This document shows, in pieces, positions 1,744 through 45,684 of a stretch of 64,000 nucleotides of DNA; the stretch's first letter is position 1; each line of letters begins with the position of its first letter. The notes beneath the pieces were generated by a model. It had not been told where the DNA came from and did no database searches. It saw only the letters and a program-made list of their open reading frames with translations. A program made the translations under genes and the position numbers. The stretch is from Arthrobacter woluwensis (GTDB taxonomy: Bacteria; Actinomycetota; Actinomycetes; Actinomycetales; Micrococcaceae), in the NCBI RefSeq assembly GCF_030816155.1, contig NZ_JAUSXR010000001.1, positions 1,612,001 through 1,676,000 of the forward strand. Direction: 5' to 3'.

Positions 1744-3540
1744 TCACCCTCTCGCCGCCAGCCCGCCGATGCCGGTCCTCAGGAACGCGAAGGGATACAG
1801 CAGCACCGGCACCACCAGGAGGACGTCTTCGCCCGAGAGGTCACCCCCGAGCAGGAGCCACGGGAGGACGAAGGTGATCACCAGGGCACAGGCGAGATAG
1901 AGCCACAGCTGCCACCACGGGTTCGGGGGCAGCCTCTTGTCCGGATCACTCGAACGGGTCCTCGACTTCTTACGGCGGCGTTCGAGCAGTCCGTGGAGCC
2001 CGTTCCAGACCATGCCGTTCAGCACCCAGATCTGCAGCGCCGTGAGGACGAGCGCGGAGACTCCGAGAAGCCACCCATCCGATGGATCCGTCCAGCGGTA
2101 GGGGTTCCCTGTGCACAGCCAGGAGAGCCAGGACCCCGGATCCACGCCGCAGCGGGCCGCCCCGTGCACCACGTTCAGAGAGGCCAGCCAGGTCATCACC
2201 TCGGGCGCGGTGAGCACGGCGGCCACCAGGGCCGCCAGCCGGGTCACGCCGAGAGACTTGACCATCACGCGGTGCGGGCGGAGACGGGTGTCACCCGGCA
2301 CGCCCGTGAAGAGCAGCGGCTCCTGCTCCCCCGCCGTCGTCGGCCGCGCGGGTTCGCGACGCGGGGTGGCGAGGATGAGCCTGGCCAGGGGGTCGATCAC
2401 CTCGATCCGGTTCCGGGAGTAGACCACGTGGTCGTACACGAGGGCCGAGCGGTTGTAGACCGGGTGCTCCTCCGGGCCGGGGCCACCGGCGCCCGGCCCG
2501 TGACGGTCGAAGATCTTGCGGAAGATGGCGGCACGACCGTCCACGGCACGGGAGATGGGACCGGCCGGGACGAAATCGAGTTTGCCCCACACATTGATCC
2601 ACCGAGGGCGGTCCGGAACGTCGAGCCAGTCCTGGACCGGATCACTCCCGTCGGTGCCGCCCCACTCCGCATATCCGAGAAGGTCGATCCCGCTGCCGAC
2701 GCTCACGAAGTTGGTGGCGCGCACGGGATCCTCAGTCCGCTGGAACAGCACCTGCCCCACGATCGCGGCGCCCTGGCTGTGCGCCACCACCGTGACGGGC
2801 ACCCCGGCGTCGCCGTCCCAGCGCGCGAGCGTCTCCCGGATCCGCTGGCGCATGGCGGCAGCCTGCATCTGCTTGCGTTTCCAGACCTGAGGGTCGCCGA
2901 GGAAGTCCGCGAACAGTGCGAGAAGCCGGCTGACGAACTGACCGAGGGCCGGGATCTTCGCCAGGACCATGAGGACGAGGCCCAGCGCGAGAATCCCGAG
3001 GATCAAGGCCGCTCCGAGCACCGCCACCACACTGATGAAGGGGATCAGGAGCGTCCAGTTGAGCAGGCGGGCCGGCAGGATGCGTTCGTGCGACGCCGGA
3101 CGGAAGGTCCACCACAGCAGTCGCAGGCACCGGGTGAACACCGTCCAGGCCTGACTCACGGCCCACCAGAAGGTGGCGCCGACGGTCGCCGGTTCGAAGT
3201 CCTTCGCCCAGGAGGCCTCGGTCATCAACACGTCGAGGTACACGGGACCGCCCGACGGCGAGCATCCGGTGAGCACCTTCACCCGGGCCTGCGGGGCGTC
3301 GCCCACGGCCGTCGCCCCGGTGATGATCAGCGGTGGGTGGTTTCCGGCGTCGTCGCACTCGAGGGCCTCATCATGGAGGCTGAGCATGAGCGGCTGCGCC
3401 CACTCCTGGAGTGTCCCGCCCTTGAGGGCTCGTCCCATGCCGTGGACGAACAGCACCACGTGATCCGGCGCGCCTTCTTCAGGCGTCTCACCGGCCTGAC
3501 GCCCGGTTGGGATGCAGCGGCCCTTCCGACGACTCCACAT
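1744..3540 (-). CDS. Membrane-associated alpha/beta-hydrolase-like protein
   Basis: This 598-residue protein appears to be a serine hydrolase joined to membrane segments. Near the N-terminus 'VVLFVHGMGR' (from about residue 28) is a typical oxyanion-loop motif. 'VVAHSQGAAI' (around residue 250) is a lipase-type nucleophile elbow with the serine in G/H-S-Q-G context. Between them are one or two strongly hydrophobic helices (about residues 165-200), and the C-terminal third has three or four more (MTWLASL, LGVSALVLTALQIWVL, LACALVITFVLPWLLL). It could act on lipids at the membrane, but no substrate is evident. It is transcribed divergently from helR. No close family name is recognised. Confidence 0.75.
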   Translation of the reverse strand: MWSRRKGRCIPTGRQAGETPEEGAPDHVVLFVHGMGRALKGGTLQEWAQPLMLSLHDEALECDDAGNHPPLIITGATAVGDAPQARVKVLTGCSPSGGPVYLDVLMTEASWAKDFEPATVGATFWWAVSQAWTVFTRCLRLLWWTFRPASHERILPARLLNWTLLIPFISVVAVLGAALILGILALGLVLMVLAKIPALGQFVSRLLALFADFLGDPQVWKRKQMQAAAMRQRIRETLARWDGDAGVPVTVVAHSQGAAIVGQVLFQRTEDPVRATNFVSVGSGIDLLGYAEWGGTDGSDPVQDWLDVPDRPRWINVWGKLDFVPAGPISRAVDGRAAIFRKIFDRHGPGAGGPGPEEHPVYNRSALVYDHVVYSRNRIEVIDPLARLILATPRREPARPTTAGEQEPLLFTGVPGDTRLRPHRVMVKSLGVTRLAALVAAVLTAPEVMTWLASLNVVHGAARCGVDPGSWLSWLCTGNPYRWTDPSDGWLLGVSALVLTALQIWVLNGMVWNGLHGLLERRRKKSRTRSSDPDKRLPPNPWWQLWLYLACALVITFVLPWLLLGGDLSGEDVLLVVPVLLYPFAFLRTGIGGLAARG

Positions 3541-3736
3541 GTCTCATCTTCCGTCCGCTCGGCGGAGAAGGAAAGGGTGGTGACAACGTACGGAGGCAAC
3601 CGGAACGCAAAGCGGGAAGAAGGAACAGAACACCTCTCCTCACTTTCAATCTATAGCGCACCGGGGGGCTTGCGGCAAGGCCCCCCGGATGCTGCACAGT
3701 AAGGGGTCCACCGACACGATCCGAGGAGAAGCCATC
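3541..3736. other. Divergent intergenic region between hydrolase and helR
   Basis: This is a promoter-bearing spacer of 196 nt. It contains an AT-richer stretch around 3640-3656 and then the rifamycin-associated element. The helR Shine-Dalgarno AGGAG lies at 3724-3728. No small open reading frame of interest is visible. Confidence 0.6.
3665..3683 (+). promoter_or_regulatory. Rifamycin-associated element (RAE) upstream of helR
   Basis: The 19-mer GGGGCTTGCGGCAAGGCCC is what I remember as the rifamycin-associated element found before rph, helR and other rifamycin-resistance genes in actinobacteria. It sits inside a longer near-palindrome (3661-3688, CCGGGGGG arms) and ends 53 nt before the helR GTG start. 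Knowledge of the motif comes from the published RAE work; its activity here is inferred. Confidence 0.85.
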
Positions 3737-5921
3737 GTGGCCGCCACCACCCCGTCCAGCGTCTTCCAGCTCCCCGAACGCCTCGCCGCCAAGGCCGACC
3801 CCGCCCTGATCGCGGACGATGAACGGCACTTCGCCGCCATCGCCGACAACCTCGAACGGACCCGCTCCGACCTCGCAGAGCGGCTGGACGCCGCACGCCG
3901 GGCCCCCGGCCGGTCAGGTCAGCAGGCCGTGGACCGCGACGCCGAGATCCGGCGCCTCACCGGTCGGCTGCGCGCGCTGGAGAGATACGGGCTCGACCTC
4001 TGCCTGGGGCGATTCGTCCCCGCCGACGGCTCGGCGCCGGTCTACATCGGACGACTGGGCCTGACGGATGCCGACGGCGAGCGCCTCCTGGTCGACTGGC
4101 GCGCACCCGCGGCCGAGCCGTTCTCCGGCGCGACTCACGCGCACCCACAGGGGGTGGCGAGCCGGCGTCGGTACCGCTGGAGCGGCGGGCACGTCGTCGA
4201 CTACTGGGACGAGGCCTTCTCCCCCGACGGAGTGGGGGGTGCGGCGTCGCTCGGCGATCTGTCCGCCTTCATCGCGAGCCTGGGCCACAGCCGCACTCCG
4301 CGCATGCGGGATGTCCTGGGCACCATCCAGGCCGACCAGGACGAGATCATCCGTGCGTCGTCGCGGGGCGCTCTCGTGGTGGACGGCGGCCCGGGCACCG
4401 GGAAGACGGTCGTGGCCCTGCACCGAGCGGCGTATCTCCTGTACGCGGATCCGCGGCTGAGCCGCGGCCGGGGCGGCGTGCTGCTGGTAGGCCCGCATCG
4501 GCACTACCTGTCGTATGTGGCGGATGTGCTTCCCGGCCTGGGGGAAGAGGGCGTGCAGGCCTGCACCATCCGCGATCTGGTGCCGGAAGGCACGACGGCC
4601 CGCGCCGAGCGCGATCCGGCGGTGGCCCGGCTCAAGTCCTCCGCGGAGATGGTGCGTGCCATCGAGAAGGCGGTCCGGTTCTACGAGGAGCCGCCCACGG
4701 AAGCCCTGCTCGTGGAGACCCCGTACCAGGACGTGCGGGTGAGTCCCGACGCTTGGGCCGAGGCCTTCGCCGCCCCGGCGCCCGGGACGCCCCACAACGA
4801 GGCGCGTGCGGAGGTCTGGGACGAACTGCTTGACCTTCTGGTGGCCGCGGCCGACGACGGCGATGTCACCGACGGCGCTCTTCGCTCGGCACTGGCCCGG
4901 AACGCGGAGCTCGCGGCCGTGTTCAACCGTGCCTGGCCCTTGCTGGAGCACACCGTGGTGGTGGGTGATCTGTGGCGGGTGCCGGCCTTCCTGTCCCTCT
5001 GCGCGCCGTGGCTCACCCCTGAGGAGGTCCGTCTGCTGCAGCGGGAGGAGCCCCAGGCCTGGACTCTGGAGGACCTGCCCCTCCTGGACGCGGCCCGGCT
5101 GCGGCTCGGCGACCCCGAGGAGGCCCGGCGTGTTCGCCGCCGGTATGCGGAGCAGGCCTCGGAGCGCGATGTGATGAACCGTGTGGTGGAGGATCTGATC
5201 GCCGCGGACGACTCGGAGATGCTCGTGATGTCGATGCTGAAGGGCGATGACCTTCAGGAGAGCCTGGGCGATGAAGGACTCGTGGCCGCGCCGTCCCCCG
5301 ATCTGCTCGCCGGCCCGTTCGGGCATGTGATCGTGGATGAGGCCCAGGAACTCAATGACGCCGAGTGGCAGATGCTCCTGGCGCGGTGTCCGTCCGGGAG
5401 TCTGACGATCGTTGGCGACCGCGCTCAGGCGCGGCAGGGTTTCCCGGAAAGCTGGATCGAACGCCTCGAGCGGGTCGGCGTCCCCGGGGGCCCGCGTGAG
5501 CGCACTCAGCATCAATTACCGCACTCCCGAGGAAGTCATGGCCGAGGCCGCGCCCGCGATCCGTTCCGCGCTGCCTGACGCGAACGTCCCGACGTCGGTC
5601 CGGAGCAGCGGGATTCCGGTCCGGCGCGGCGCGGTCGCTGAACTCGACATGGTGCTCAGCACCTGGCTGGCGGAGAACACCGAGGGCATCGCCTGTGTGG
5701 TCCGTGCCGTCCCGAGCGAAGGGGCCGAGCGCCGGCGGGCGGATGATCTGGCGGATGATCCCCGGGTGACGTTCCTGACGGCGGAAGAGGCCAAGGGCCT
5801 CGAGTTCGACCTGGTGGTGCTCGTGGACCCGGCGGGTTTCGGTGCCGGCATCGAGGGCGCGGTGGACCGGTACGTGGCCATGACCCGGGCGACCCGGGAG
5901 CTGGTGATCCTCGAGACCTGA
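3737..5921 (+). pseudogene. helR: HelR, RNA polymerase recycling/rifamycin-resistance helicase, frameshifted
   Basis: HelR is a HelD/UvrD-like superfamily 1 ATPase that binds RNA polymerase and displaces rifamycins. The Walker A motif GGPGTGKT is near residue 215, the Walker B/DExx box VIVDEAQE near residue 533, and a C-terminal 'YVAMTRATRELVIL' motif closes the protein. The GTG at 3737 has AGGAG 8 nt upstream; the open frame begins at 3689 but that extension lacks a ribosome site. The frame breaks at the C4G5 run (5482-5490): dropping one G gives VGVPGARVSALSINYR and joins the two frames into about 727 residues. As written, the protein ends at 5578 with an unrelated tail and loses its C-terminal helicase domain. 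Sequencing error or a true mutation are both possible. Confidence 0.88.
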
Positions 5922-6066: not shown

Positions 6067-6405
6067 ATGGGCAAGCAGATGACCGAGATGCTCAAAGGCA
6101 CCTTGGAGGGCATCGTCCTCGCCCTCCTGGCCGAGCAGCCGGCCTACGGATATGAGATCACCGCACGCCTGCGGGACCGGGGCTTCGCCGACATCGCGGA
6201 GGGCACCATCTACGCCCTCCTGGTGCGGCTCGAGCAGAAGAAGCTCGTGGACGTCCAGAAGGTGCCGAGCGAGAAGGGACCGCCGCGCAAGGTGTTCACC
6301 CTCAACGCGCAGGGAGCCCAGGAGCTCGACGAGTTCTGGAACACCTGGACCTTCCTCGCACAGCACATCGAACAGCTGAACAAGACCGGAAACAAGGAGA
6401 ACTGA
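6067..6405 (+). CDS. PadR family transcriptional regulator
   Basis: This 112-residue protein is a PadR-type winged-helix repressor. 'GTLEGIVLALLAEQPAYGYEI' forms helix 1 and the start of the recognition region, and 'IAEGTIYALLVRLEQKKLV' carries the conserved G-T-I/L-Y-x-L-L-x-R-L motif. The C-terminal helix 'ELDEFWNTWTFLAQHIEQL' would mediate dimerisation. The ATG at 6067 has a strong AAAGGAGG site. It is the first gene of a four-gene operon (spacing 2 nt to the next gene). PadR proteins of this type often sense drugs and repress a linked ABC exporter. Confidence 0.93.
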   Translation: MGKQMTEMLKGTLEGIVLALLAEQPAYGYEITARLRDRGFADIAEGTIYALLVRLEQKKLVDVQKVPSEKGPPRKVFTLNAQGAQELDEFWNTWTFLAQHIEQLNKTGNKEN

Positions 6406-6407
6406 TC

Positions 6408-6779
6408 ATGGCCGCGAAGTGGATCGAAGCGCTCACCGGATCGCTCGAACAGAAGAAGCAGTACCGCCAGGCGAAGGCCCGGCTCGACGCCCTCCCCTCG
6501 CCGTACCGGGAGGTGGCCAACGCCCAGCACCGGTACTCCATGTACTACGGCGGGATCACCGACGGCGACACCCTCGTCCAGATGTTCCTGGACCTGGCCG
6601 ACCTTTGGGAGCGTGCGGCGCTGGACGGCACCCCCATCAGCGCCATCGTCGGCGAGGACCCTGTGGAATTCGCCGAGAACTACGCCCAGTCCTACGGCGG
6701 CGCCCAGTGGATCGACAAGGAGCGGGCCCGTCTCATCAAGGCCGTCGACGACGCGAAGACGCAGGAGGACAGGCCATGA
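6408..6779 (+). CDS. DUF1048 domain-containing protein
   Basis: This 123-residue soluble helical protein matches the DUF1048 family. The motif 'YREVANAQHRYSMYYGGITDGDTLVQMFLDLADLWERAA' in the middle and 'WIDKERARLIKAV' at the end are characteristic. DUF1048 genes are commonly found between a PadR regulator and an ABC exporter, as here. The stop overlaps the next start as ATGA. Its molecular role is not known; a partner of PadR or of the exporter is a guess. Confidence 0.85.
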   Translation: MAAKWIEALTGSLEQKKQYRQAKARLDALPSPYREVANAQHRYSMYYGGITDGDTLVQMFLDLADLWERAALDGTPISAIVGEDPVEFAENYAQSYGGAQWIDKERARLIKAVDDAKTQEDRP

Positions 6780-7552
6780 GCTCGCCGGCCATCTCGGTCC
6801 GTGGCATCGAGAAATCGTACAAGGACCTCCCGGTCCTCCGCGGTGTCAACTTCGACGTGGAGCCGGGCGGGATCTTCGCCCTCCTCGGCTCGAACGGCGC
6901 CGGGAAGACCACCATGGTGCGGATCCTCTCAACCCTCCTCCAGGCCGACGCCGGCACCGCCACGGTGCTGGGCCACGACGTCGCGCGTGAAGGCCTGAGC
7001 GTCCGCGAGGTCATCAGCCTCACCGGACAGTTCGCGGCCGTGGACGAGATCCTCACCGGCCGGGAGAACCTGGTGCTCGTCGCGAAACTCCGCCACGTCC
7101 CCGATCCCGGCGGCGTCGCCGACGAACTCCTGGCGGCCTTCCGTCTCACGGAGGCCGGTGGCCGGAAGGCCGGCAGCTATTCCGGAGGCATGCGGCGCCG
7201 TCTCGACATCGCGATGAGCCTGGTGGGGCATCCCGAGGTGATCTATCTGGACGAGCCGACCACGGGGCTCGACCCCGAAGCCCGCCTCGAAGTCTGGGAG
7301 GTCGTCAAGGGTCTCGCCGCCGGCGGCACCACGGTCCTGCTGACCACGCAGTACCTCGACGAGGCGGAGCACCTGGCCGACCGCATCGCCATTCTGCACG
7401 AAGGCCGGATCATCGCCAACGGCACCCTGGCGGAGCTCAAACAGCTCCTTCCGGCCGCCACGGTGGAGTACGTCGAGAAGCAGCCGACGCTCGAGGAGAT
7501 CTTCCTCCAGCTCATCGGTCCACGTCAGACCCAGAAGGAGGACGCGTCATGA
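6776..7552 (+). CDS. ABC transporter ATP-binding protein (DrrA-like)
   Basis: This 258-residue nucleotide-binding subunit powers the exporter with the next gene. Walker A is GSNGAGKTT, the signature is YSGGMRRRLDIAMSL, Walker B is VIYLDEPTTGLDP, and a switch region with LLTTQYLDEAEHLADRIAIL follows. The C-terminal segment 'QPTLEEIFLQLIG' is the one seen in DrrA-like drug and lipid exporters. I use the ATG at 6776, because the open frame extends upstream only as a shadow of DUF1048. It overlaps both neighbours by 4 nt (ATGA), implying coupled translation. The substrate is unknown. Confidence 0.94.
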   Translation: MSSPAISVRGIEKSYKDLPVLRGVNFDVEPGGIFALLGSNGAGKTTMVRILSTLLQADAGTATVLGHDVAREGLSVREVISLTGQFAAVDEILTGRENLVLVAKLRHVPDPGGVADELLAAFRLTEAGGRKAGSYSGGMRRRLDIAMSLVGHPEVIYLDEPTTGLDPEARLEVWEVVKGLAAGGTTVLLTTQYLDEAEHLADRIAILHEGRIIANGTLAELKQLLPAATVEYVEKQPTLEEIFLQLIGPRQTQKEDAS

Positions 7553-8316
7553 GCACCCATGCGCTCGCGGACACCGCGACACTCACCGGCCGCTCCCTGC
7601 GGCACATCTTCCGCAGCGCGGACACCATCATCACCACGGCGGTCACCCCGATCGCCCTGATGCTGCTCTTCGTCTATGTCTTCGGAGGAGCACTCCGGCA
7701 GAGCACCGGGACCGAGAACTACGTCAACTACCTGCTGCCGGGCATCCTGCTCATCGCCATCGCCTCCGGCATCGCGTACACGGCGTTCCGGCTGTTCACC
7801 GATCTGCAGAGCGGGATCTTCGAACGGTTCCACTCCATGCCGATCGCCCGGTCCAGCGTGCTCTGGGCTCACGTGCTGACCTCGATGGTGGCCAACGGCA
7901 TCACGCTGGTGATCATCTTCGGCGTCGGATTCCTCATGGGCTTCCGCACCGGGGCGAGCGTGCTCGCCTGGCTCGGCGTCATCGGAATCCTGCTCCTCTT
8001 CACCCTGGCCCTCACGTGGCTCGCCATCATCGCGGGCCTGAGTGCCAAGACCACCGACGGCGCGAGCGCCTTCTCCTACCCGCTCATCTTCCTGCCGTTC
8101 ATCAGCTCGGCCTTCGTGCCGACGGCCACCATGCCCGGTCCGGTGCGGTGGTTCGCCGAAAACCAGCCGGTGACCTCGATCGTGAACACGATCCAGGCAC
8201 TGTTCGCCGGGCAGCCGGTGGGGAGCGACATCTGGGTCGCGCTGGCCTGGTGCGTCGGAATCCTCGTGGTCGCCTACGTGCTGGCGACCGCCGCTTACCG
8301 GAAGAAGATCAGTTGA
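7549..8316 (+). CDS. ABC-2 type transporter permease (DrrB-like)
   Basis: This 255-residue integral membrane protein has about six membrane segments, for example VTPIALMLLFVYVFG, LLPGILLIAIASGIAY, GITLVIIFGVGFLMG, WLGVIGILLLFTLALTWLAII and ALAWCVGILVVAYVLATAAY. The DrrB-type loop 'RLFTDLQSGIFERFHSMPIAR' and the 'FLPFISSAFVPTATMP' motif are present. It pairs with the ATPase before it to make an exporter for drugs or lipids. A hairpin terminator follows the gene. Confidence 0.93.
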   Translation: MSTHALADTATLTGRSLRHIFRSADTIITTAVTPIALMLLFVYVFGGALRQSTGTENYVNYLLPGILLIAIASGIAYTAFRLFTDLQSGIFERFHSMPIARSSVLWAHVLTSMVANGITLVIIFGVGFLMGFRTGASVLAWLGVIGILLLFTLALTWLAIIAGLSAKTTDGASAFSYPLIFLPFISSAFVPTATMPGPVRWFAENQPVTSIVNTIQALFAGQPVGSDIWVALAWCVGILVVAYVLATAAYRKKIS

Positions 8317-9336: not shown

Positions 9337-10126
9337 TCAGGCCCTGCCCGTCCGGCGCCGGATCAGGAACAGCGCCGCTCCCAGCACCAAGGCGACGGCG
9401 GCGAGCAGCGCCACGAGCGCGACGTCGCCGGAGTATCGGGGACCCTGCCAGCGCGCGACGGCGATCCAGGCGACTCCCCAGACCATGGACACCAGCGGAG
9501 TCCAGGCCCCGCGGCGCGCGAGGGCCAAACCGATCGCCACGACGACGGCGAGCACCGCCACCGACGTGAACACCTCCGGCCAGACGACGCCGGCCCACGC
9601 GAGCACCGCCGCCACATTCGCCACGGTGGCGACGCAGATCCAGCCGAGGTAGAGGCCGAAGACCGCCACGCTCAGCACCCACTCCACGCCGGCCCGGGGC
9701 GTGACGCCCTCGGTCAGCATGAGAATCCGGCACAGGACCGCGAGCAGCAGGGCCATGACCACCAGGGTGGCCGGGAGACTGCCGAGCTGGGCGGCCCAGA
9801 GCCACGCGGCATTGAGCAGCATCGACGCGGCGGCCCACGGCCTGAGCCGCTGCTGCAGGGCGTCCCTCCGGGCCCGGCGCCCGAGCTGCCATACCGCATA
9901 GGCCAGGAGCCCCAGGTAGATCACACTCCAGATGCCGAAGGCGGCGTTGGCCGGCGCCAGTGGAGTGGCGGTGCTGGAGAGATACCCCTCCCGCCGCGGA
10001 GGCGACCGGAGTCAGACCGAACGCCCCGGACCCTCCGGCCGCCAGGACCAGCGCCAGAAGAGCGGCTGCGAGCGTCGCCACGGCTGGGACGAGGTGCGAC
10101 TTCGGAGACTGCAGTGCCATCGACAT
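9337..10126 (-). pseudogene. tspO: TspO/MBR family protein, frameshifted
   Basis: TspO-type proteins are five-helix membrane proteins that bind porphyrins and related tetrapyrroles. The N-terminal part from ATG 10126 (AGGAGG site 5 nt upstream) reads 'MSMALQSPKSHLVPAVATL' plus the first helix. The rest (VIYLGLLAYAVWQLGRRAR, LNAAWLWAAQLG, VSMVWGVAWIAVARWQG) lies in another frame. Removing one C from the CCCC run at 9985-9988 (G-run on the coding strand) rejoins them as 'AAGGYLSSTATPLAPANAAF', giving about 262 residues. It is divergent from crtE, a linkage fitting a link between tetrapyrrole or light sensing and pigments. Confidence 0.82.
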
Positions 10127-10169
10127 GGTGTCCTCCTCTGGACAATCGAGCGTTCCTCGACAACCATAT

Positions 10170-10192
10170 TTGTAGATAGTCGAGATATACAA
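10170..10192. promoter_or_regulatory. Palindrome in the tspO-crtE divergent promoter region
   Basis: TTGTA (10170-10174) and TACAA (10188-10192) are the outer arms of an imperfect 23-bp palindrome in the 121-nt gap between the divergent tspO and crtE genes. On the minus strand TTGTAT and TATGGT could be -35 and -10 for tspO. C50 carotenoid clusters in relatives are controlled by a MarR-type repressor; a dimer site of this size would suit one, but no such regulator is encoded next to it here. AGCTAG is also repeated directly at 10195 and 10211. Confidence 0.4.
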
Positions 10193-10247
10193 CAAGCTAG
10201 ATGTTCTAAGAGCTAGGCAGTCACGCCGGCCGAGTCAAGGAGTGGAC

Positions 10248-43172: not shown

Positions 43173-44765
43173 TCAGGCCTGGGCCGCTGCGGGGGTCTTC
43201 TTACGGAGCAGCGCCAGGAACATGGCGTCCGTCCCGTGCTGATGGGGCCAGAGCTGAACGTACCCTCCGTGGTCGGCGGACAGCGATTCCCCCCGCGCCA
43301 CGCCATCGATCACGGGGCCCGCGTCGAGGAGTTCCAGATCGTCGCGGCGCTTGAGGACGTCGTCCACCACCATGCGGGTCTCCGCGAGGTGCGGGGAACA
43401 CGTCACATACGCGATGACGCCGCCCGGCCGGGTGGCCTGGATCGCGGAGTCCAGCAACTGACGCTGCAGGGGGCCGAGCTCGGTCAGGTCCTGGGGCGTA
43501 CGCCGCCAGCGGGACTCCGGCCGACGGCGCAGAGCACCGAGGCCGGTGCACGGAACGTCGACGAGGACACGGTCGAACTGCTCCGGGAGCTTCTCCCCCA
43601 CGTCACGGCCGTCTCCGGTGCGGACCTCCCAGCGTTCCTCCGGGACCGGCTGAAGGGCGCGCCGGACGAGCTCGGCCCGGTGCTGCTGAGACTCGTTGGC
43701 CAGCAGCGACGCGTCCGCGTCGATCGCCAGGGCGGCGAGCAGGGCGGCCTTGCCACCCGGACCGGCGCACAGATCGAGCCAGCGCTCCGGGCCGCCGTCG
43801 CCGCCCACGAGGGGCGCGGCCACCAGAGCCCGCGCGACCAGCTGGGAGCCGACGTCCTGCACCCGGACGACGCCGTCCCGCACCGCCGGGATACGGCCCA
43901 GATCGCCGCCTGCCGACAGCCAGGACCCCTCCAGGAGCGGGCCGGGTTCGGCGCCGCTGTCGTCTAGGTCGTGTGCGGACGCCAGCGACGGCAGAGCCAC
44001 GAGGTTCACCACGGGGGCCTCGTTGTCGGCCGCGAGGAGGTCTTCGATCTCGGCCACGTCGTGGCCGTGGCCCACGAGCGCCTGGCGCAGGGCCCGCACG
44101 ATCCACGCCGGGTGGGCCTGGCGGAGGGCGAGCTGCTCGATGACATCGGGTGTCCGGGACGAGATCTCGTCCAGCCACTCCTCCAGCGTGTGGGCGCTGA
44201 CCTTGCGGAGCACCGCATTGACCAGTCCGGACGGCCCGGCGCCGATCACCGCACGCGTCAGACCGACGCTCTCATCGAGGGCCGCGTGCGCGGGGACCCG
44301 CATGCCGAGGAGCTGGTGCGCTCCGAGCCTGAGCACGTCGAGCACGGCCGGGTCCAGGTCCTTCAGAGGCCGGTCCACGGATTCGGACAGGATGGCGTCG
44401 TAGCTGCCCTGGCCCCGGAGGGTGCCGTAGGCGAGTTCCGTGGCGAACGCGGCGTCCCGGCGTTCCAGCCGGTGCTCGCGGATGAGGCCGGGCAGCACCA
44501 GGTTGGCGTAGGCGTCCGCGCCGGAGACGGCGCGGAGCACCTCGAACGCGACCAGACGGGCCGGGTCGGCGCGGCGTGAACGCTGCGAGGGCGCGGCCGA
44601 GCTGAACTGCCGGCCACCGCCGCTGTTGCCGCGATGCCGTTCGCGGCCCTGCGCGTTCCTGCGTCCGGCGTCCCGGCCACTGCCGGAGCGGCCCGAGCCG
44701 CCCGAACCTGAACCACCCGAACCCGATCCACCCCTGGACTGGGGCGTGCCCCGATGCTGGCTCAT
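43173..44765 (-). CDS. rsmB: 16S rRNA m5C967 methyltransferase (RsmB/Sun)
   Basis: RsmB methylates a 16S rRNA cytosine. The 530-residue protein starts with a 70-residue Ser/Gly/Arg-rich tail (GGSGSGG repeats), then a NusB-like RNA-binding domain, then the methyltransferase with '[14 protein letters not shown]' (SAM), '[16 protein letters not shown]' and catalytic '[12 protein letters not shown]'. The ATG at 44765 overlaps the fmt stop. The low-complexity head is common in actinobacteria. Confidence 0.93.
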
Positions 44766-45684
44766 GCGAAGGTCACTTTCTCCAGGGCGGCCAGGCCACG
44801 GGCCCAGTCGCGTGCTGACATCATGCGTTTGCCGCTGGGCTGCACCTCGAGTAGCTCCAGGCCGTGACTGCCGGTGCCGACCACCACGGACTTCCCCACG
44901 AGCCGCAGGGTGCCGGGGGCCAGATCCCGGACGTCCGGCCGGAGCGCGAGGGCCCCGATCTTGAAGCGCTGGCCGTCGAGTTCGGTCCATGCGCCAGGTT
45001 CCGGAGTGACGCCCCGGGCGCGGCGGTGCAAGGACAGCGCCGGCAGGGACCAGTCGAGACGGCCGTCCTCCAGCGTGAGTTTGGGGGCGAGCGTCGGCGT
45101 GCCCTCCTGGGGCCTCGCCTCCGCCCGGCCCGTGGCGATCGCCGACAGCGTCTGGGCGAGCAGGACCGCGCCGCTCACCGCCAGACGTTCGAGGACCACG
45201 CCGCTCGTGTCATCCGGTCGCGCCGTCTCGGTCATGGTGCCGAACACCGGACCGGTGTCCAGGCCCGCCTCCAGCTGGAAGGTCGAGGCGCCCAGGACGT
45301 CGTCGCCGTTGATGAGGGCGTGCTGAACGGGGGCCGCCCCGCGCCAGGCGGGCAGCAGGGAGAAGTGAAGGTTGATCCAGCCGTGCGCCAGGGCGTCGAG
45401 CGCGGACTGCGGCACCAGACCGCCGAAGGCCACGATCGCCCCGACCTCCGCGCCGGTCGCCACGATCTGCTCCGTCACCTCCGGGGTGGGATGCGGGAGG
45501 CCTTGATGACCTCCAGCCCGAGCTCTTCGGCGCGCTGCGCCACCGGCGACGGGGTCAGGACGCGCTTCCGGCCGAGCGGCGCATCGGGGCGGGTCAGGAC
45601 ACCCACCACCTCGAAGCCGGCCTCGAGCAGGCGGTCGAGGGACGGGACGGCCACCGCCGGTGTTCCGGCGAACAGAACCTTCAC
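44762..45684 (-). pseudogene. fmt: Methionyl-tRNA formyltransferase, frameshifted
   Basis: Fmt formylates initiator Met-tRNA. From GTG 45684 the protein reads '[20 protein letters not shown]' through '[15 protein letters not shown]' and then hits a stop. The rest resumes in another frame as '[20 protein letters not shown]' with the catalytic 'NLHFSLLPAWRGAAPVQ'. The break is at CCGGGG (45481-45486): adding one base or losing two restores about 307 residues. Because fmt is needed for normal growth, a sequencing indel is likely. The gene overlaps def (GTGA) and rsmB (ATGA). Confidence 0.88.

What the first reader, a model, noticed from the sequence alone, without database searches (positions are those of the whole stretch)
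3665..3683. Rifamycin-associated element in front of a helR homologue
A 19-bp motif that I recall as the actinobacterial rifamycin-associated element sits 53 nt before the helR start, inside a longer palindrome. RAE controls rifamycin-inducible resistance genes, and HelR removes rifamycins from RNA polymerase. Together they predict an inducible rifamycin-tolerance locus in an Arthrobacter-like soil organism.
Basis: partly seen in the sequence, partly recalled or inferred. Interest (0 to 1): 0.75.

Follow-up and report, generated by a model that had tools for sequence, protein, structure and literature searches.

The report
Drug-sensing promoter switch before helR
A soil-type actinobacterium carries a rescue gene (helR) for RNA polymerase behind a known antibiotic-responsive DNA element, and comparing many relatives suggests that this element is the centre of a larger, mirror-image promoter module whose workings can now be tested.

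Summary
The 19-bp RAE sequence lies at 3665-3683, 53 nt before the GTG start (3737) of a class II HelD/HelR gene, and is the only site within 2 mismatches in the 3.5-Mb genome. RAE plus helR is already published, so the locus is a new member of a known kind. In this assembly helR is split between two frames near 5484-5488. Sister species have it open, and 3 of 52 comparable genes in the window are split the same way, so an assembly indel is likely.

What I did not find in the papers held: RAE is the centre of a rigid module of about 75 bp. In 57 relatives with flanks 50% identical or less, an A..T pair like that of a -10 sits at one fixed place on each side (51 and 50 of 57; about 1.5 expected), mirror-symmetric about the RAE. 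The RAE would give both a TTGC[GC]G -35, with 19-bp spacers. At the predicted antisense start a covarying inverted repeat begins. No linked regulator was seen. Whether RNA polymerase itself or an unlinked factor senses the drug is open. The window's own hairpin is poor.

The parts
3665..3683 (+). RAE, 19-bp imperfect palindrome GGGGCTTGCGGCAAGGCCC
   Evidence: same core in front of HelR-, Rox-, Rph-, Rgt- and Arr-type genes elsewhere
3670..3675 (+). TTGCGG, proposed -35 of sense promoter P2, inside the RAE
   Evidence: 19-bp spacer to the conserved downstream hexamer; PMC10719064 section 9 says RAE overlaps the -35 region of P2 in M. smegmatis
3695..3700 (+). CACAGT, proposed -10 of P2 (consensus CASAAT)
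   Evidence: A(+32) with T(+36) in 51 of 57 loci with flank identity of 50% or less, 162 of 168 at 75% or less
3706..3708 (+). predicted P2 transcription start, about 3707
   Evidence: inference: 7 nt after the -10
3673..3678 (-). TTGCCG, proposed -35 of the mirror-image antisense promoter, inside the RAE
   Evidence: inference from symmetry; 19-bp spacer to the hexamer at 3648-3653
3648..3653 (-). TAGATT, proposed antisense -10 (consensus TAnnYT); overlaps the sense reading CAATCT 3647-3652 (P1)
   Evidence: A(-16) with T(-12) in 50 of 57 loci, A(-11) in 51 of 57
3641..3641 (-). predicted antisense start (G at -23)
   Evidence: inference; sense C at -23 in 47 of 57; start of the covarying inverted repeat in relatives
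3592..3641 (-). place of the 5' hairpin/terminator-like repeat of relatives; poor in this copy
   Evidence: MFE -7.5, z +1.67; the sister species' copy (L158) folds well, z -3.42
3737..5488 (+). helR, first piece (N-terminal, ATPase part)
   Evidence: NF041254 model positions 1-573; frame leaves homology at about 5488
5484..5921 (+). helR, second piece (C-terminal helicase part) in another frame
   Evidence: NF041254 model positions 577-705

Best explanation
This is an RAE-controlled helR promoter of the kind known to be rifamycin-inducible (identity about 0.9). The RAE works as the shared -35 hub of two back-to-back overlapping promoters: sense P2 (TTGCGG-19-CACAGT) reading into helR, and a mirror-image antisense promoter (TTGCCG-19-TAGATT). 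The upstream -10 also fits a second sense start, P1. My committed mechanism (about 0.45) is a promoter-occupancy switch. In drug-free cells the upstream element, which has the better -10 (T at position 1) and usually the better -35 (TTGCC), holds RNA polymerase and, because the footprints overlap at the RAE, keeps it off the weaker P2. Rifamycin shifts occupancy to P2, HelR is made, and HelR releases drug-stalled polymerase. Shown: sequence geometry, conservation, inverted repeat in relatives. Inferred: start sites, relative strengths, direction of the switch. Unknown: whether polymerase itself or another factor senses the drug.
For: RAE and HelR identity. Clusters were named from one to three representatives each; the Rgt representative and two of three Rox-type ones are below the curated cut-offs. 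Hexamers fixed on both sides in all five classes. In 88 order-level loci that do not repeat one search's stretches (90 fetched, 2 repeats): perfect core, both hexamers 58 of 62, one 4, none 0; one mismatch, both 17 of 20, none 3; two mismatches 0 of 5; 1 without flank. All 30 family helR loci have both. A search with the flanks only, wildcards in place of RAE, found 9 sites in 8 of 396 genomes; 8 hold the exact core and 1 has one mismatch; control 0. Inverted repeat at -23: own arms pair better than swapped arms, 15.62 v 12.87 sd 0.30 (n=93) and 12.88 v 11.03 sd 0.31 (n=69), no permutation of 2000 reaching either. No neighbour family at a fixed place among 102 stretches of up to 8 kb. Precedent: B. 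subtilis dual-promoter rifampicin alarm (PMC12802891).
Against: No expression data. An A and a T four apart read as a -10 in either direction, so the antisense start is a prediction. The B. subtilis logic uses convergent promoters; here a drug-stalled polymerase at the upstream start would cover the RAE and could block P2, so how the drug favours P2 is not explained. The palindrome's outer GGG/CCC arms go beyond a -35 and look like a protein operator. A consensus scan of 3500-3800 finds no promoter and no terminator (it allows spacers of 16-18 only). The window's own antisense RNA folds worse than shuffles (z +1.67); only 28 of 93 relatives reach z below -2, and one I singled out, L162, gives only z -1.05. 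helR is split in this assembly. PMC10719064 puts the P1 start about 20 bp before the RAE, my sense reading about 5 bp.
Confidence: 0.5

Rival explanations
1. RAE is an operator for a dedicated, unlinked transcription factor (most simply a dimeric repressor covering both -35s) that responds to rifamycin or to stalled polymerase; the mirrored promoters are just its targets.
For: 19-bp palindrome with outer arms; PMC10719064 and PMC12802891 both raise an unknown factor; a site centred about 33 bp before each predicted start fits a repressor.
Against: No linked regulator family at a fixed place in 102 stretches (the 14 most widespread families viewed); one RAE in this genome; two own-family loci lost one outer arm but keep both hexamers (L180, L183). 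None of this excludes a factor.
Confidence: 0.4
2. Tandem sense promoters P1 and P2 only, as drawn for M. smegmatis, with P1 interfering with P2; the upstream element is only sense and the inverted repeat is an insulating terminator.
For: P1 and P2 are the mapped starts quoted in PMC10719064 section 9; the sense reading CARnnT is also conserved and A at -4 is common.
Against: No conserved -35 at a usual distance for P1; A(-11), T1 of the antisense -10, in 51 of 57; the repeat is as frequent with a divergent upstream gene (z<-2 in 15 of 42) as with a co-directional one (10 of 37; 3 of 14 without a near gene), though insulation would matter most for the latter; its position is fixed at -23.
Confidence: 0.25
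3. helR is a true pseudogene in this strain and the RAE is a relic.
For: Frame break; hairpin poor here but good in the sister species.
Against: 3 of 52 genes over 55 kb show the same kind of break against the sister, 0 of 48 the other way; completeness 95.4% in one contig; the two pieces keep 94% and 92% identity to the sister.
Confidence: 0.2

Closest known systems
RAE-helR of Streptomyces venezuelae and Mycobacterium abscessus (Surette 2022, Hurst-Hess 2022; cited in PMC8655204 and PMC10719064, originals not read)
   Same: 19-bp palindrome in the 5' region of a HelR-clade class II HelD
   Different: Different organism; helR split in this assembly; induction untested. The two-sided module is not mentioned in the passages I read.
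B. subtilis helD/pps dual-promoter rifampicin alarm (PMC12802891; abstract, passages and sections 48-49 read)
   Same: helD-type gene, rifampicin, an antisense promoter opposing a weaker sense promoter, no dedicated factor in its model
   Different: Convergent promoters 39 bp apart and no RAE; here back-to-back, overlapping at a palindrome
Bidirectional bacterial promoters (PMC10268837, passages read)
   Same: -7T and -11A reciprocally paired; starts 18 bp apart are predicted for the upstream element
   Different: Here conserved across genera and coupled to a second promoter through the RAE
M. smegmatis rpoBC tandem promoters (as described in PMC10719064 section 9)
   Same: Low rifampicin shifts use from one promoter to another
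   Different: No RAE or mirror symmetry mentioned there

Membership tests
RAE (rifamycin-associated element) | 19-bp palindrome of the published sequence | not testable with these tools
   The original papers tried are not held; the letters come from the finding and recall. PMC10719064 confirms a 19-bp palindrome before helR.
RAE (rifamycin-associated element) | found upstream of rifamycin-resistance genes | tested here: met
   105 of 122 sites: HelR 50, Rox 32, Rgt 10, Rph 9, Arr 4 by cluster, clusters named from representatives
RAE (rifamycin-associated element) | overlaps the -35 of a sense promoter (P2) | tested here: met
   by sequence only: TTGCGG and the conserved hexamer at 3695-3700
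RAE (rifamycin-associated element) | confers rifamycin induction | not testable with these tools
   needs expression data
HelR (class II HelD) | HelR family model above its cut-off | tested here: met
   NF041254 954.2 bits v 750; HelD_MYCSM and HelR_2 models below their cut-offs for the split pieces
HelR (class II HelD) | DWR[A/S]P motif without the extra class III residue | tested here: met
   LLVDWRAPAAEPF in the translation; motif from PMC8655204
HelR (class II HelD) | complete open reading frame | tested here: not met
   two frames in this assembly; open in sister G425
HelR (class II HelD) | PCh loop that releases rifamycin | not tested
   alignment to 6yxu_H spans the region but the loop was not examined
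B. subtilis-type convergent dual promoter | two convergent promoters | tested here: inconclusive
   inward readings keep A and T but no conserved -35 was seen for them; outward readings fit better

The most novel reading that the evidence does not exclude
RAE is not mainly an operator for a missing regulator but the shared -35 of a mirror-image divergent promoter pair that spread as one 75-bp cassette in front of at least five unrelated resistance genes; its antisense arm makes a very short RNA that folds and stops at once, and RNA polymerase itself is the rifamycin sensor.
Probability: 0.28. Interest if true: 0.82.

Novelty: new member of a known kind. Interest (0 to 1): 0.52.

Why it matters
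How RAE works is stated to be still unknown in a 2026 paper (PMC12802891). The extended module names exact places (two hexamers, predicted starts, one repeat) that tell a promoter switch from a dedicated regulator, and gives a stricter way to find true RAEs: among order-level loci, core-like sites with 2 mismatches had neither hexamer (5 of 5), perfect-core sites mostly had both (58 of 62).

Tried and rejected
RNA-hairpin reading of the RAE itself: positions 4 and 16 are Watson-Crick complementary in 25 of 93, 18.8 expected under independence; little support, although sense RNA over the window's RAE does fold there. A viral RAE (L156, the only stretch): no complete A..T pair on either side; chance. 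Core matches in a Euryarchaeota and a Nitrospirae MAG: no hexamers on either side; in Paraburkholderia and Aerophototrophica contigs one side only. MerR-type reading of the 19-bp spacer: the palindrome is centred on the -35, not in the spacer; set aside from recall of MerR sites. Linked regulator: none seen (stretches of up to 8 kb, so neighbours are only partly covered). Convergent reading: fits less well.

Rows dropped: of 122 sites, 1 ambiguous, 15 without a classified gene (8 of these have both hexamers, 2 neither, 2 one side, 3 too near a contig end) and 1 lacking 150 nt of flank; redundancy filters left 93. The sense count misses L044 because its spacer is one base longer. The sets (such as 52 and 51 of 55) took order-level loci only if they had a hexamer, and did not exclude the window or 2 repeats; one search repeats the count without these (51 and 50 of 57), and that is what I report. 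A stretch of L162 folded began 6 nt late (z 0.22); the right stretch gives z -1.05. One of the 30 family loci (L170) has its RAE 799 nt away.

Full report
Observation. The RAE string is exact at 3665-3683 on the plus strand and unique at 2 mismatches or fewer in the 3,508,095-base genome. It ends 53 nt before GTG 3737. The gene is a class II HelD of the HelR clade. A second HelD-type gene of the same genome (G000:C1:1106637, 38% identity) has no RAE within 2 mismatches, since the only such site in the genome is this one.

The gene is split. Homology runs in one frame to about 5488 and goes on in another from about 5484. The same comparison with sister genome G425 finds 3 of 52 matched genes split in the window and 0 of 48 in the reverse direction. 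Two sister species have an open helR frame (G425 95%, G406 89% identity); a third, G444, 93% complete, shows only the more distant HelD among the listed matches. I favour an assembly indel, and state no mend.

RAE in relatives. In 396 genomes of the same order, 138 have a match at 2 mismatches or fewer. In the family all 197 genomes have some HelD match; 33 matches, one per genome, reach my cut of 470 bits for the helR clade. The 30 of these given as loci all have an RAE core, 28 with 1 mismatch or fewer and 2 with 3, 29 of them 53-181 nt before the match and one at 799 nt, and all 30 have both hexamers.

The module. I aligned sites without gaps on the RAE and oriented them by the resistance gene. 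Conservation goes far beyond 19 bp. In 93 non-redundant loci: A(+32) 92, T(+36) 91, A(-16) 92, T(-12) 91, A(-11) 91. With flanks 50% identical or less and the window left out, 51 and 50 of 57 keep the two A..T pairs; no other place scanned (-110 to +99, RAE left out) exceeds 16 of 57, and 1.5 are expected. The two pairs are mirror images about the RAE centre. Outward readings give CASAAT downstream and TAnnYT upstream, each 19 bp from a TTGC[GC]G inside the RAE. The reverse test works too: flanks alone retrieve the RAE core in 9 of 9 hits, one of them with one mismatch.

The repeat. From the predicted antisense start (-23) many relatives carry an inverted repeat, for example GGCAAGGAG..CTCCTTGCC. 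Folding z is below -2 in 28 of 93, against 6 of 93 and 0 of 93 in two control stretches; 5 or more T in 8 bases in 42 of 93 against 8 of 93. Arms match their own partner better than others' partners in both sets, and in the first set the effect peaks at -23. It occurs with divergent and co-directional upstream genes alike. The window copy is poor (z +1.67), while the sister species with 95% helR identity has a perfect stem followed by TT (z -3.42).

Literature. PMC8655204 (passages), PMC10719064 (passages, section 9) and PMC12802891 (abstract, passages, sections 48-49) were read. They describe RAE before helR, P1 and P2 in M. smegmatis, loss of induction when half the RAE is deleted, and a possible unknown regulator. 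PMC10719064 puts the P1 start about 20 bp before the RAE; my sense reading puts it about 5 bp before, which I could not reconcile without the figure. Of my RAE searches only named a divergent promoter, and no paper listed there held that term together with RAE; the key originals are not held, so absence from print is not established.

Mechanism. I commit to a promoter-occupancy switch at the RAE, about 0.45, with an unlinked factor almost as likely (0.4); the rivals overlap, so the odds do not sum to one. The parts that are shown are sequence facts; starts, strengths and drug response are inferred.

Noticed in passing
window 9340-10195 and 44765-45684 (-): Two more genes split between frames compared with sister genome G425, pointing to indel errors in this assembly.
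   Followed up: partly
window 6067-8316 (+): PadR-family regulator and genes that read like an ABC transporter (by eye) directly downstream of helR; any link to rifamycin is unknown.
   Followed up: no
window 1744-3540 (-): Divergent 598-aa gene with no Pfam match and an AHSQG hydrolase-like motif (by eye); the predicted antisense start at 3641 would read towards it.
   Followed up: no
L099, L117, L147 (Chloroflexi MAGs), L112 (Xanthomonadaceae MAG), L133 (Mesorhizobium contig): RAE with Rph-, Rox- or Arr-type genes on contigs labelled as non-actinobacterial; hexamers kept except in L133. Transfer or mis-binning.
   Followed up: partly
oriented RAE loci, about +43 to +62: A recurring leader like CCGAAGCCAGAACCTGCGGAAA after the predicted P2 start in a number of loci; meaning unknown.
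   Followed up: no
G444 (same genus): A same-genus genome (93% complete) without a listed helR-clade match, only the distant HelD.
   Followed up: no
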